Made by a program: the position numbers and the translations under genes. This document shows, piece by piece, positions 1-45,200 of a stretch of DNA of 64,000 nucleotides. Positions within the stretch are counted from its first letter, which is position 1. Each line of letters opens with the position of its first letter. The stretch covers positions 1,509,501 to 1,573,500 of the forward strand of contig NZ_OU342399.1 in assembly GCF_910589745.1 (NCBI RefSeq), in the 5' to 3' direction. The notes beneath the pieces are model-generated. The model saw only the letters and a list, made by a program, of their open reading frames with translations, did not search any database and had not been told where the DNA came from. Origin of the DNA: Candidatus Arcticimaribacter forsetii (lineage in GTDB: Bacteria > Bacteroidota > Bacteroidia > Flavobacteriales > Flavobacteriaceae).

Positions 1-89
1 TAACGAATATACGGCTTCCGTTAAATCAAAAGAAGTAAAAATTACAACAAAATACTTCTTAGTCTGTAGGTTTTAATAAAAAGGGATGT

Positions 90-97
90 TATATTTG
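90..97 (+). promoter_or_regulatory. -7 box of the tRNA-Arg promoter
   Basis: TATATTTG matches the Bacteroidota -7 consensus TAnnTTTG and lies 60 bp before the tRNA. No clear -33 TTG is seen at the usual 19-21 bp spacing, so only half of the promoter is supported. The preceding bases 1-89 hold no recognisable gene; AGAAGTA (31-37) and TACTTCT (53-59) could form a weak terminator hairpin of an upstream gene. Confidence 0.4.
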
Positions 98-156
98 CAC
101 CCAACAATAACAAAATCAATTGTGGTGTCGTTTAAATGCCCAATAAGATTTTAAAA

Positions 157-230
157 GGCCTCGTAGCATAACTGAATAGTGCACTTGATTACGGCTCAAG
201 AGGTTGCAGGTTTGAATCCTGCCGAGGTCA
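157..230 (+). tRNA. tRNA-Arg (anticodon ACG)
   Basis: A complete cloverleaf can be drawn. The acceptor stem GGCCTCG pairs with CGAGGTC with one G.T pair, and A230 is the discriminator base. The anticodon stem is CTTGA/TCAAG around loop TTACGGC, giving anticodon ACG. The T arm is GCAGG-TTTGAAT-CCTGC. CCA is not encoded. The 3' part from base 184 is duplicated at 1514-1564, so the gene has served as an integration target and remains intact at the left end of the insertion. Confidence 0.93.
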
Positions 231-234
231 CTAA
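184..234 (+). repeat. Left direct repeat (att-like), tRNA 3' half
   Basis: Bases 184-234 match 1514-1564 at 50 of 51 positions, with one difference at 187/1517 and 47 identical bases in a row from 188. The repeat runs from the anticodon stem to four bases past the tRNA. This is the usual geometry when a tyrosine recombinase inserts an element into a tRNA gene and restores its 3' end. Confidence 0.85.
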
Positions 235-235
235 G

Positions 236-265
236 GCTCAGCCAATTATAGGCTGGGCTTTTTTA
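236..265 (+). terminator. Terminator downstream of tRNA-Arg
   Basis: GCTCAGCC (236-243) pairs with GGCTGGGC (251-258) over 8 bp including one G.T, with loop AATTATA and a T-run after it. It lies just past the end of the direct repeat, so it belongs to the inserted DNA. A different hairpin with its own T-run follows the second repeat copy at 1565-1597. Confidence 0.75.
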
Positions 266-377
266 TTAGGTGACAGATACGGTTACTATTTGCTCAATTA
301 TGGGATAAGAATTACTATATAGAACTATCTCGGTTATCGGTACTATGTTATACCTACTACTAAAGTATTGACACTGT

Positions 378-385
378 TATATTTG
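378..385 (+). promoter_or_regulatory. Possible -7 box ahead of the hairpin array
   Basis: TATATTTG fits TAnnTTTG and would start a transcript near 392, upstream of the hairpin array and on the strand that the G.U pairs predict. TTG at 368-370 is too close to act as the -33 element, and none is seen at normal spacing, so this is tentative. Confidence 0.3.
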
Positions 386-474: not shown

Positions 475-798
475 GACGTATTACTACACGTTATGGTCTT
501 TTAGTGTACTCAATCTCTTTCTAATTCTGTCGAGTAACGTTGGGAATCTCTATAGTAACTCCCTATGATGTTCGACACTTTTGCTAGTAATGTTGCAAGA
601 CGTAGGTAATCTCTATAGTACTCCCTATGTTCTGCATCACTTTTGTCGAGTAACGTATCCTTTCTCTATAGTAATAGGATATGTCCGTCGACACTTTTAC
701 TAATTCTGTCACACAACGTAGTCATTCTCTATATAAGTAACTATGTTCTGCATCACTTTTGTCACACAACGTATTTTTCTCTATAGTAATAAATATCT
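475..798 (+). ncRNA. Tandem hairpin array, candidate structured RNA
   Basis: Hairpins start at ACGT(A/T) boxes at 476, 537, 600, 653, 716 and 769, with further boxes lacking the partner arm at 821 and 854. Starts 537-653-769 and 600-716 are exactly 116 bp apart, so the unit is two hairpins separated by alternating 31-32 and 22 nt linkers. Stems: 653-661/676-684 (9 bp), 600-606/624-630 (7 bp), 716-722/740-746 (7 bp), 538-545/560-567 (7 bp, one mismatch), 771-776/791-796 (6 bp). The upper stem differs in each but stays paired. Loops are nearly constant with core TCTCTATAGTA (TCTCTATATAAG in the fifth). A conserved G.T third pair is stable only as + strand RNA. The hairpin at 475-498 is degenerate. 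A further hairpin, TACTTAA/TTAAGTA, lies at 862-889. No known RNA family is recognised. Confidence 0.55.
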
Positions 799-945
799 CT
801 TGTGACATTTTTGTCGAGTAACGTAGTCAATCACCTTCTAATAATAATGCACAACGTATCTTACTTAATAATATAAACTACTTTAAGTATAGAACAGTAG
901 CAATGCAGTTCCAGAATAAATAAAAAAATAACTTAATTTTACAAT

Positions 946-1362
946 ATGAAAAATACAATCACACTATTATTACTGGCTATAAGCTTCACTGCTTCAGCTC
1001 AGATTTCAACTTTAAAAATATCAAATGATGCTTACTACACTGTAGACCGATATAAGACTACATTCCACTACAGATACACTCCTACTGATGAGATGCCTAA
1101 GAGTATCAAGACCAATATAAATGGTTTATTAGGTGCTATACAAATTTTTGCAGACGTAGAGATAGATGGAGAGTGGGTTATCCTTAAGAGAATTAAAATG
1201 GAGCAGGAGAATAACGCGTTATCAAGCGTTAAGATAGCAATGGGTATAGAGACTTTATTCTACAAGAATTCTGGAAAACAGCATAAGGAAAAGAAGCTTA
1301 AAAAAAGTAAAGGGATAAAAAGATGGGCTGATAATCTAATCGGTATGATTAAACAGTATTAA
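946..1362 (+). CDS. Small secreted protein of unknown function
   Basis: 138 residues. Residues 1-18 form a clear Sec signal peptide (hydrophobic LLLLAISF then ASA before Q19), so the mature protein should be exported to the periplasm or beyond. The mature part is about 120 residues; its C-terminus is strongly basic with several lysine pairs (about 110-125). No family is recognised. The ATG follows an A-rich stretch typical of this group. No promoter is evident in the 80 bp upstream, so the gene may share a transcript with the hairpin array 150 bp before it. It is the only substantial gene between the two tRNA-derived repeats. Confidence 0.7.
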   Translation: MKNTITLLLLAISFTASAQISTLKISNDAYYTVDRYKTTFHYRYTPTDEMPKSIKTNINGLLGAIQIFADVEIDGEWVILKRIKMEQENNALSSVKIAMGIETLFYKNSGKQHKEKKLKKSKGIKRWADNLIGMIKQY

Positions 1363-1513: not shown

Positions 1514-1564
1514 CTTAATTACGGCTCAAGAGGTTGCAGGTTTGAATCCTGCCGAGGTCACTAA
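1514..1564 (+). repeat. Right direct repeat (att-like), tRNA-Arg 3' fragment
   Basis: This is the second copy of the tRNA-Arg 3' half, identical to 184-234 except A for G at 1517. The 5' half of a tRNA is absent: upstream bases do not complete a D arm or acceptor strand, so this is not a functional tRNA. It marks the right end of the inserted element. Confidence 0.85.
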
Positions 1565-1597
1565 AAACCAGCTCTTTATAGGGCTGGTTTCTTTTTT
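1565..1597 (+). terminator. Terminator after the tRNA fragment
   Basis: AAACCAGCTC (1565-1574) pairs with GGGCTGGTTT (1581-1590) around TTTATA, including one T.G pair, followed by CTTTTTT. It is probably the original terminator of the tRNA-Arg gene, separated from it by the insertion. Confidence 0.75.
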
Positions 1598-1844
1598 AGC
1601 AGATCTTTTTGTAAATCATTTTACCTCATTTACTCACTATCTAACTTCTTAACTTACTAAAGAGAATATACCTGTCATTTAAACAAACCTATATTGTGTT
1701 CAATACTCTATAATTTTAAAAAAATTGTTTAAAGGTCTAGGTTAAAAGTGAACAAACTAGATTGAAACTAAATCATAGGCGGTAATAGAACAACTTTATA
1801 AATTAGATTTAGTATATTTAGGTTGCGATTTAAAATTAATAAAA

Positions 1845-2072
1845 ATGGATAAAATTAAGAAGATAAAACAGAATGGGATAATATTTATCGGCTTAGGAGC
1901 TGGTGTGTTAAGTTTAAATGAATTAATTGATTTCACAGAACCTACTATATGGGCACTTAATATAGCAGGAAGTATTTTGGTAGCTTTACCTTTTCCATTT
2001 TACCTATATGATGGGATAAAAAAAATCTCAACTGACTTAACCAACTTATATCTAAAGAAATATAGTTTTTAA
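1845..2072 (+). CDS. Small two-helix membrane protein, unknown
   Basis: 75 residues. Two hydrophobic segments are visible at about 10-28 and 35-55, separated by an acidic turn, with lysines at both ends, so a small inner-membrane hairpin protein is likely. No family is recognised. TATATTTA about 30 bp upstream resembles a -7 box. The gene lies in AT-rich DNA between the tRNA-Arg insertion and the alginate lyase gene, with the next small gene 46 bp downstream on the same strand. Bases 1598-1844 upstream show no other gene. Confidence 0.5.
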   Translation: MDKIKKIKQNGIIFIGLGAGVLSLNELIDFTEPTIWALNIAGSILVALPFPFYLYDGIKKISTDLTNLYLKKYSF

Positions 2073-2118
2073 TTCTATTACTTCAAGAATTTAAACATAA
2101 TTTATAATCAATAAAAAA

Positions 2119-2340
2119 ATGGAAAAAGTAATCTGTTTACTCTTATTCACTTCAATTCTTGTTGGTTGTGAGAAAAAAGATGAATGCTTAATCATTCGTG
2201 AAAAAGCATCCCAAAATGGAGAATACTATTTCATTGATAGGAGTGGATTTGTTGATGAAAACACAGTTGCAGGTCAAGTTAATGTATCATTAGAAGTATT
2301 TAATCAATACGCTGTTGGAGATGAATATTGTATAGAATAA
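2119..2340 (+). CDS. Small lipoprotein, unknown
   Basis: 73 residues. A lipoprotein signal is visible: a hydrophobic stretch at 5-16 ending in LVG before Cys17. The mature part is only 56 residues with two further cysteines (23 and near the C-terminus, 71), which could form a disulfide in the periplasm. No family is recognised. An A-rich start region (AATAAAAAA before ATG) supports translation. It probably forms a transcription unit with the small membrane-protein gene 46 bp upstream. Confidence 0.55.
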   Translation: MEKVICLLLFTSILVGCEKKDECLIIREKASQNGEYYFIDRSGFVDENTVAGQVNVSLEVFNQYAVGDEYCIE

Positions 2341-2651: not shown

Positions 2652-3707
2652 CTATTCAGTATCCGGAGAGGTTCCTGGACCAAGCGAGCCTTCTTTGAAC
2701 CAAACCTCTGTATAGCATCCATTTGCATATTGCTTTGATATATCTCCATCAAAAGTTTCTGAATCGGTACTCCAAACAATATTATCTTCTGGTTTCTTAC
2801 CATTGGTTTGGTTGTAAGCACCTTGTTTAAAATATTGAACTTCCCCTGCATATGCAGTTTCTCTTTCGACACCATCTCGGTTTATTGGAGCATATAAAAC
2901 ACGAACTTGCTCCGGCATATCGGATTTATTAGAGAAATCCGACTTAAGCAAGTTTTTTGAAAATGTTTTTGTTTCATGGTTAGTGCTTTCGAAAGTTAAA
3001 TACATCATTCCCTGATAAACGTTTACTTCATAACTAAACTCCTCTCCTAGCTCTATACCCTCTTCCGGCTCTTCCGGATACACATTAGAGCTTGGCCCTA
3101 CTACAGACATATCATATCCCCAAACGGCTGTAGAAAAATCCCATCTTCCCGAATTAGATCCAGCAGTATTGATTTCGTAATTCCAAAAAATAGATCCTTT
3201 TTTATGACCTGGAAATTTTTTATAAAAAATCTTCAAGGGCTCATTCTCATGACCTTCATCACTGTGTATTTGCCCAACAACAACAGAATAAGAAGCGGCT
3301 ACTCGAGCATCCCCTGAGGTAGAAACATGTTGAACTTTTAAAGTTCCGGTCAGCTTCCCTCCTGTCTCGGGTATCCATTTTTTTAATTGCCCTAGTTCAG
3401 TCCTTGTGTTTTTTGAATTTCGTGACGTTATTCCTGAATTTGGTGTTTTATAAACTACCCAATCCACTCCGTTTTGATTTTCTACGTAGAAAAAATCTTT
3501 TTTGTCAAACTTTACAAGTGAATCTACATAAGTTCCGTCCCCTAAAAGAATTTTCCATTCATCCAAAAAAGGAAGGACATCACTTGGGAAAACTTTAGCA
3601 CTTTGATTGGTTTGATTCTTCGAATTAGAAACACAGGCAGTTGATAATATGGAAATTGTTATTCCAAAAATTAAAGAATATAATGGTTTATAAAAAATAG
3701 ATTTCAT
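2652..3707 (-). CDS. PL7 family alginate lyase, lipoprotein
   Basis: Probable endo- or exo-acting alginate lyase that cleaves 4-O-linked uronate polymers by beta-elimination. The three PL7 signature blocks are present in order: NTRTELGQL (catalytic Arg102), GQIHS (Gln146, His148) and YFKQGAYNQ (292-300, with the catalytic tyrosine). At 351 residues it is a PL7 domain plus an N-terminal lipoprotein signal (STA before Cys25) and a roughly 50-residue tail after the last motif. The lipid anchor suggests display at the cell surface or in the periplasm. No SusC/SusD pair lies beside it, so it is not part of a visible polysaccharide utilisation locus here. It suggests use of brown-algal alginate. 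Confidence 0.9.
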   Translation of the reverse strand: MKSIFYKPLYSLIFGITISILSTACVSNSKNQTNQSAKVFPSDVLPFLDEWKILLGDGTYVDSLVKFDKKDFFYVENQNGVDWVVYKTPNSGITSRNSKNTRTELGQLKKWIPETGGKLTGTLKVQHVSTSGDARVAASYSVVVGQIHSDEGHENEPLKIFYKKFPGHKKGSIFWNYEINTAGSNSGRWDFSTAVWGYDMSVVGPSSNVYPEEPEEGIELGEEFSYEVNVYQGMMYLTFESTNHETKTFSKNLLKSDFSNKSDMPEQVRVLYAPINRDGVERETAYAGEVQYFKQGAYNQTNGKKPEDNIVWSTDSETFDGDISKQYANGCYTEVWFKEGSLGPGTSPDTE

Positions 3708-45048: not shown

Positions 45049-45200
45049 TGTGGTTTTTTAAAGTTCCCAAAAATAACCTTTTTATTCTAATTCAGAAAGC
45101 TCAATTTTCATATTTTAACAGAAAGCTCCTTTTTTAAATTCAGGTTACCTGTTTTGAATAATAAATTGGCTTATTAACTTACTTTATTTTTAGAAATCAT

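What the first reader, a model, noticed from the sequence alone, without database searches (positions are those of the whole stretch)
475..798. Hairpin array with exact 116-bp period and covarying stems
Seen: boxes ACGT(A/T) at 537, 653, 769 and at 600, 716 are each 116 bp apart, two hairpins per period. The upper stems differ (GGGA/TCCC, GG/CC, ATCCT/AGGAT, GT/AC, TTT/AAA) yet stay paired, while loops stay nearly constant. Inference: stem pairing is selected, loop sequence is conserved, so the array is a structured RNA. The G.T third pair occurs in the same orientation in all five, which is stable as + strand RNA but would be A-C mismatched on the other strand. Only about five units in one sequence are available, so coincidence of duplication and mutation remains possible. 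No known RNA family is recognised by me.
Basis: partly seen in the sequence, partly recalled or inferred. Interest (0 to 1): 0.85.

Follow-up and report, generated by a model that had tools for sequence, protein, structure and literature searches.

The report
Hairpin array in tiny tRNA-integrated element
A small piece of DNA inserted at a tRNA gene of a bacterium carries five tandem hairpins whose stems changed letters but mostly stayed paired, which suggests that the folded shape matters, although no relative was found to prove it and what it does is not known.

Summary
Five hairpin units (528-577, 591-639, 644-693, 707-755, 760-807) alternate at 63 and 53 bp (period 116); a decayed sixth copy lies near 811-872. 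Across them 57 of 64 stem cells pair, and 9 cells in 6 of 14 pairs changed on both sides and still pair. Unconstrained divergence never gave both values in 4,000 simulations at any of five rates. Loop TCTCTATAGTA and the lower stem are conserved. The element carries no integrase gene, only one secreted-looking 138-aa orphan. "RNA on the + strand" is not established: both strands fold equally well, two u4 mismatches would pair only on the - strand, and no promoter stands out. Short T-runs after every hairpin favour +. No homologue was found in three overlapping samples of about 300-400 genomes, nor by exact patterns in 84,980 species genomes and IMG/VR, so covariation across relatives is untestable. 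Template switching could also make such changes. Best reading: a selected, structure-recognised hairpin array in a cis-mobilizable-type element, more likely RNA than DNA. Confidence is modest.

The parts
157..231 (+). tRNA-Arg (anticodon acg), the integration target; its 3' part forms the left att copy
   Evidence: ARAGORN; Rfam tRNA 58.9 bits
188..234 (+). left copy of the 47-bp exact direct repeat (attL-like)
   Evidence: identical to 1518-1564, period 1330
233..261 (+). terminator-like hairpin with T tail at the element's left end, just after the tRNA
   Evidence: window 235-299 is 80% identical to the sequence after tRNA-Arg in congener G008
311..324 (+). 14-nt stretch matching 13 of 14 bases of the reverse complement of the array loop TTCTCTATAGTAAT; may be an inverted loop copy or a pairing partner
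   Evidence: 1 of 1000 shuffles of 232-475 as good; part of the match is due to the palindromic CTATAG centre
378..385 (+). TATATTTG, the only exact TAnnTTTG (Bacteroidetes-type -7 box) on either strand of 232-1600; no matching -33 box
   Evidence: motif recalled; full promoter pattern not above shuffles
528..577 (+). hairpin unit u1
   Evidence: (63.9 bits; the model was built from it)
591..639 (+). hairpin unit u2
644..693 (+). hairpin unit u3, the most stable (-17.8 kcal/mol)
707..755 (+). hairpin unit u4; outer stem broken on the + strand, loop altered
760..807 (+). hairpin unit u5
811..872 (+). decayed sixth unit
   Evidence: model R1 15.1 bits at 812-872, weak; ACGTA boxes at 821 and 854
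946..1362 (+). ORF of 138 aa with a signal-peptide-like N-terminus (read by eye), no convincing relatives found
1518..1564 (+). right copy of the 47-bp direct repeat (attR-like)

Best explanation
A 1,330-bp element without an integrase gene, integrated at the 3' end of tRNA-Arg, carries a five-unit hairpin array formed by duplication of a two-hairpin block. Selection kept the pairing of the outer and upper stems while their letters changed, and kept the loop (TCTCTATAGTA) and lower stem (ACGTA/TATGT) nearly fixed. The array therefore most likely acts as a folded single strand. My best guess is a + strand RNA, either an untranslated leader of the secreted-looking orphan ORF or a separate short RNA, in which each hairpin shows the same loop to one partner, so that the array offers several binding sites. 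Shown: the units, the pairing statistics, the conserved blocks, the att-like repeats and the empty site in congeners. Inferred: selection, single-strand action, RNA rather than DNA, the strand, the partner.
For: 57 of 64 cells paired, 9 double-changed cells paired and, by the same rule, 0 double-changed cells unpaired. Neutral divergence of a paired ancestor on the 10 variable pairs: 0 of 4000 simulations at each of five rate settings reached both observed values. Whole-arm swaps: 2 of 120 arrangements of the upper stem and 8 of 120 of the outer stem are as good as the real one (u1 and u3 have nearly the same outer arms and u2 and u4 the same 3' outer arm, which limits the outer test). Invariant columns cluster in loop and lower stem (20 of 47 gap-free columns, longest run 8; P 0.003 by run squares, 0.012 by longest run). 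RNAalifold, unaided, predicts nearly the same double stem, 5 of its 14 pairs with a kept double change. All five hairpins are followed within 2 nt by a run of 4-5 T on + (starting 579, 641, 695, 757, 808) and the downstream ORF is on +. 116 is not a multiple of 3, so this is not a coding repeat.
Against: One sequence, five related units. The alignment and structure were chosen on these data, and the simulation does not model template switching; the count of double changes alone was reached in up to 3.2% of simulations at the highest rate. RNAalifold gives no covariation bonus (+0.16 kcal/mol). Strand not resolved: equal fold energy on both strands; two u4 cells pair only on -; the array is T-rich on + (T 38%, A 26%) whereas the neighbouring ORF is A-rich on its coding strand (A 40%). 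No promoter signal above shuffles and no terminator-like site for an array transcript. The 541-nt stretch as a whole is not unusually stable. The u4 outer stem is broken. Spacings of 63 and 53 bp are close to 6 and 5 turns of B-DNA, which would suit a double-stranded DNA site. No relative found in which to test conservation.
Confidence: 0.42

Rival explanations
1. DNA-level site: the units are repeated sites in the element's DNA (regulation, replication, or recombination by a lost or helper-encoded recombinase), recognised as duplex or as hairpins extruded from single-stranded DNA.
For: Lies in an att-flanked element. Spacings 63/53 are 6.0 and 5.05 helical turns at 10.5 bp. Both strands fold equally. 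The loop centre CTATAG is itself a palindrome.
Against: Duplex recognition would conserve the arms, yet these are the parts that vary while paired. Only two independent spacings exist, because the 116-bp block was duplicated, so the phasing may be chance. The loop outside CTATAG is asymmetric. No recombinase gene in the element, and none like that of G005 in the genome; other recombinase types were not searched for.
Confidence: 0.25
2. Mutational by-product: imperfect palindromes repaired arm-from-arm by template switching during replication, in a decaying element, with no present function.
For: Template switching can create perfect stems and multi-base compensatory changes in one event (PMC8794818, abstract with part of the introduction, and one Results section read). 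Double changes here are clustered in adjacent pairs (u1 versus u3, u5 versus the rest). The element lacks an integrase gene, has no relatives found and carries a decayed unit.
Against: Does not explain the nearly fixed loop and lower stem. Arm-from-arm copying across the region would also have removed the G.T pair and the internal loops, which persist. The loop was not inverted in any of the five units, and at 14-17 nt it is longer than the 4-nt loops most enriched in that paper's Table 2 (lengths 3-8 listed).
Confidence: 0.25
3. Type III toxin-antitoxin-like module: repeat RNA upstream of a protein gene that it inhibits.
For: Tandem structured repeats directly upstream of an ORF on the same strand.
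Against: The ORF looks secreted and matches no toxin family in Pfam or PADLOC at E up to 1. No terminator-like site between repeats and ORF. Units are plain hairpins by prediction and longer than the ToxI repeat described in the passages of PMC8860590; pseudoknots were not tested.
Confidence: 0.03

Closest known systems
STAXI motif (tandem structured motif near DNA-handling genes; PMC2864571, STAXI section read)
   Same: Short structured unit repeated in tandem, possibly RNA, possibly single-stranded DNA
   Different: STAXI is mainly a pseudoknot repeated usually three times, frequently near ssDNA-binding, topoisomerase, antirestriction or integrase genes; here plain two-stem hairpins, five copies, no such gene in the element, one genome
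Type III toxin-antitoxin antitoxin arrays (ToxI; PMC8860590, passages read)
   Same: Array of structured repeats upstream of an ORF on the same strand
   Different: Secreted-looking orphan instead of an endoribonuclease; no terminator-like site before the ORF; longer unit; hairpin rather than pseudoknot by prediction
Integron attC arrays (recalled)
   Same: Imperfect palindromes in series whose pairing matters more than their sequence
   Different: No RYYYAAC or GTTRRRY box in 475-880 on either strand (motifs recalled); no cassettes between units; here the loop is the conserved part
Cis-mobilizable element (CIME; PMC5704250, passages read)
   Same: att-like repeats kept, no integration or transfer genes; tRNA target
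   Different: Only 1,330 bp; the hairpin array and one orphan ORF are its main content

Membership tests
Any Rfam 15 family | Match at the curated gathering score | tested here: not met
   only 3 tRNAs in the window. (232-1517, E up to 10): best sub-threshold match over the array is mir-2024, 27.5 against a gathering score of 69 bits, E 0.0045, taken as chance
Type III toxin-antitoxin (ToxIN/CptIN/TenpIN) | Downstream endoribonuclease toxin gene | tested here: not met
   no toxin family for the 138-aa ORF at E up to 1; only DUF3157 at 0.0063, below its cut-off
Type III toxin-antitoxin (ToxIN/CptIN/TenpIN) | Terminator between repeats and toxin ORF | tested here: not met
   terminator-like sites in 100-1700 only at 233-261 and 1565-1590
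Type III toxin-antitoxin (ToxIN/CptIN/TenpIN) | Repeats form pseudoknots | not tested
   Only nested folds were computed
Integron attC array | R boxes RYYYAAC / GTTRRRY (recalled) | tested here: not met
   none on either strand of 475-880
Cis-mobilizable element (CIME) | attL and attR retained | tested here: met
   47-bp exact repeats, period 1330; empty site in G012 and G013
Cis-mobilizable element (CIME) | No integration or transfer genes inside | tested here: met
   the only ORF over 47 aa within 235-1517 is the 138-aa orphan; no integrase or transfer family for it. The G005 integrase has no match in the own genome at E 1e-5
Cis-mobilizable element (CIME) | Still mobilisable by a helper | not testable with these tools
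   Needs an excision assay
Structured RNA (general) | Covariation across independent homologues | not testable with these tools
   No homologue found; within-array test positive
Structured RNA (general) | Transcribed | not testable with these tools
   No RNA-seq at hand; promoter scans not above shuffles

The most novel reading that the evidence does not exclude
A previously undescribed kind of multivalent hairpin array carried by a minimal, integrase-free tRNA element. Its near-identical loops, with the self-complementary centre CUAUAG in four of five units and an antisense copy at 311-324, would hold several copies of a protein or of each other (loop-loop contacts), and the array, not a protein, would be the element's main working part.
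Probability: 0.2. Interest if true: 0.7.

Novelty: new variant of a known kind. Interest (0 to 1): 0.42.

Why it matters
If the array works as a folded strand, it is an unknown structured-repeat class whose unit history can be read inside one locus, and a 1.3-kb element whose content is largely a nucleic-acid structure rather than genes. It also offers a compact natural test of whether paired changes in hairpin arms come from selection or from template switching.

Tried and rejected
Homologue searches that led nowhere. BLAST of the array in its own genome: itself plus 3 matches of 22-31 bases at E 0.40-0.75. BLAST of the whole element in 100 genomes including the own one: 78 have a match at E 0.001, nearly all to the 47-bp tRNA part; besides these the G008 left end and three short matches outside the array (G044, G082, G072; 33-50 bases over window 922-990 and 1099-1131, that is around the ORF start and inside the ORF), which I did not follow up. 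Array DNA in plasmids and element DNA in phages: none. Hairpin model R1 in 296, 397 and 395 genomes (overlapping samples that include the own genome; E cut-offs 0.01, 0.003, 0.002; strict filters, 14-20 candidates scored per genome): besides the array, three single weak matches (27.1, 26.4, 30.3 bits). I rejected these as chance: no second unit within the fetched loci, and the 30.3-bit one lies inside an ORF of 555 aa on the other strand.

Pattern scans. ACGTA N2-5 TCTCTATAGTA in IMG/VR: 16 stretches, none with the hairpin by fold and eye. Two loops 38-68 bases apart: 76 stretches, all 76 searched with R1, no match at E 0.1; 4 of them show stems of 6 or more at both loops but are other repeats by eye. 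The strict two-arm pattern in 84,980 species genomes gave 0; as written it fits only u2 and u3 of the five own units, and the own genome may be left out of that collection, so it is a narrow test without a positive control. The left-end pattern in IMG/VR gave 0. No similar array was seen in six downstream stretches of tRNA-Arg in congeners.

The 138-aa protein: no relative in IMG/VR, in 84,980 species genomes, in phage records, or in 148 other related genomes. PHROG 5474 at 4e-4 covers residues 1-40 only, i.e. mostly the signal peptide. NCBIfam has one match at 0.23 and the PDB two at 0.035 and 0.17 over 27-28 residues, taken as chance. The AlphaFold model without an alignment is poor (pLDDT 55), so I did not search folds with it.

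Loop as antisense to a chromosomal target: 15 sites within one mismatch in the genome, of which 4 are array loops and 1 is 311-324; the reversed-pattern control gives 11, so nothing beyond chance outside the element.

Papers: searches with general terms; no listing that I saw described this array. The host may be a strain like Formosa Hel3_A1_48 (recalled from genome size, not tested).

Full report
What is there. The window comes from a 2,034,069-base single-contig genome (G000, 91% complete). Five hairpin units lie at 528-577, 591-639, 644-693, 707-755 and 760-807. Their starts are 63, 53, 63 and 53 bases apart. 525-640 and 641-756 form a 116-bp direct repeat, 72% identical without gaps (75% over 152 bases by BLAST). 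So the exact period comes from duplication of a two-hairpin block, followed by one more unit and a decayed one (812-872, 15.1 bits, weak).

Is the pairing more than chance? On alignment A2 with the double-stem structure, 57 of 64 cells form standard pairs and 9 cells in 6 of 14 pairs changed on both sides while still pairing; sliding the partners by 1-3 columns gives 21-45% paired. Swapping whole arms among units: 2 of 120 arrangements of the upper stem and 8 of 120 of the outer stem reach the observed value. Neutral divergence of a paired ancestor, simulated on the 10 variable pairs with a ((u1,u3),(u2,u4),u5) history at five rates, never reached both observed values in 4,000 runs each; taken alone, the paired fraction was reached in at most 0.075% and the number of double changes in 0.025 to 3.2% of runs, rising with the rate. 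Invariant columns are clustered in loop and lower stem. RNAalifold finds nearly the same shape unaided, with 5 of 14 pairs showing a kept double change but no covariation bonus (+0.16) because some pairs break. Limits: five related units, structure chosen on the same data, and template switching not modelled.

Results against a simple story. The outer stem of u4 is broken on the + strand; u1 and u5 have mismatches in the lower stem. The 541-nt stretch as a whole is not unusually stable on either strand (z -1.2 and -1.5), and 60-nt windows not fitted to unit ends give modest values. The u4 hairpin is absent from the centroid of the + strand fold.

Which strand, and RNA or DNA? It is present in 5 of 5 units, but that may be one inherited state, and two u4 cells are A-C type, which pair only on the - strand. 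Summed fold energies are equal (-60.9 on +, -60.4 on -). For + speak the T-runs directly after all five hairpins and the direction of the next ORF; no A-run of four occurs within the array. For - speaks, weakly, base composition: T-rich on + whereas the neighbouring ORF is A-rich on its coding strand. The only exact Bacteroidetes-type -7 box (378-385; motif recalled) lacks a -33 partner, and promoter counts do not exceed shuffles. The spacings are near whole turns of B-DNA, a lead for a duplex site, although only two of them are independent. I therefore prefer RNA on + only mildly.

Where it lies. In congener G012, sequence matching window 28-110, then the tRNA, then sequence 73% like window 1566-1655 run on without the insert; in G013 the tRNA is followed directly by sequence 83% like window 1565-1654. 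The G004 contig ends 38 bases after its tRNA but agrees. The insert is therefore an integrated element of att-to-att type. In congener G005 the same tRNA holds two att-like copies 27.5 kb apart, with a 453-aa protein next to the right copy that matches the Pfam integrase domains Arm-DNA-bind_5 and Phage_int_SAM_5 above their cut-offs (no catalytic-domain model at E 0.001). That protein has no match in G000 at E 1e-5. In G008 the tRNA is followed by 65 bases 80% like the left end of our element, without array in 6 kb and without a second exact att core; its two 2-mismatch matches also occur in G000 and G005, where one lies in a tRNA-Pro of the window. The G000 element fits the description of a cis-mobilizable element (PMC5704250, passages). 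Its only ORF over 47 aa, 946-1362, has a signal-peptide-like start and no convincing relatives.

An antisense copy of the loop. Window 311-324 matches 13 of 14 bases of the reverse complement of the loop (1 of 1,000 shuffles of 232-475 as good). Six of these bases come free, since CTATAG is its own complement. It could be an inverted fragment of a unit or a pairing partner of the loops; I could not decide.

Novelty. No Rfam family at threshold and no homologue found (calls listed in Tried and rejected). The nearest published idea that I read is STAXI, a tandem structured motif that may act as RNA or single-stranded DNA (PMC2864571, one section). Type III antitoxin arrays and attC arrays fail tested features. 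The main threat to the reading is template switching, which can give multi-base compensatory changes in one event (PMC8794818, abstract with part of the introduction and one section).

Verdict. The feature is real, with unusual internal covariation, in a setting of known type. Function and even molecule are open. A single genome limits what can be claimed, hence moderate interest.

Noticed in passing
window 188-234 and 1518-1564: tRNA-Arg (acg) is an integration site: 1,330-bp element here, a 27.5-kb interval between two att-like copies with an integrase in congener G005 (L021, L022), empty in G012 and G013 (L023, L024).
   Followed up: yes
L020 1232-1288, 1736-1840, 2041-2086: In congener G008 the small secreted-type ORFs after the same tRNA are separated by repeated junctions (53 nt 87% and 39 nt 82% alike), like gene cassettes.
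   Followed up: partly
window 1845-2340: Two short ORFs (75 aa, membrane-like by eye; 73 aa, lipoprotein-like by eye, PHROG 6716 at 0.0012) beyond the right att copy; 27-bp similar stretches at 2060-2086 and 2361-2387.
   Followed up: partly
window 311-324: Near-perfect antisense copy of the array's loop inside the same element.
   Followed up: partly
window 3208-3238: A 31-bp inverted self-match (87.5%) inside the Alginate_lyase2 gene 2652-3707.
   Followed up: no
window 45079-45136: Short tandem repeat, period 26, 2.2 copies.
   Followed up: no
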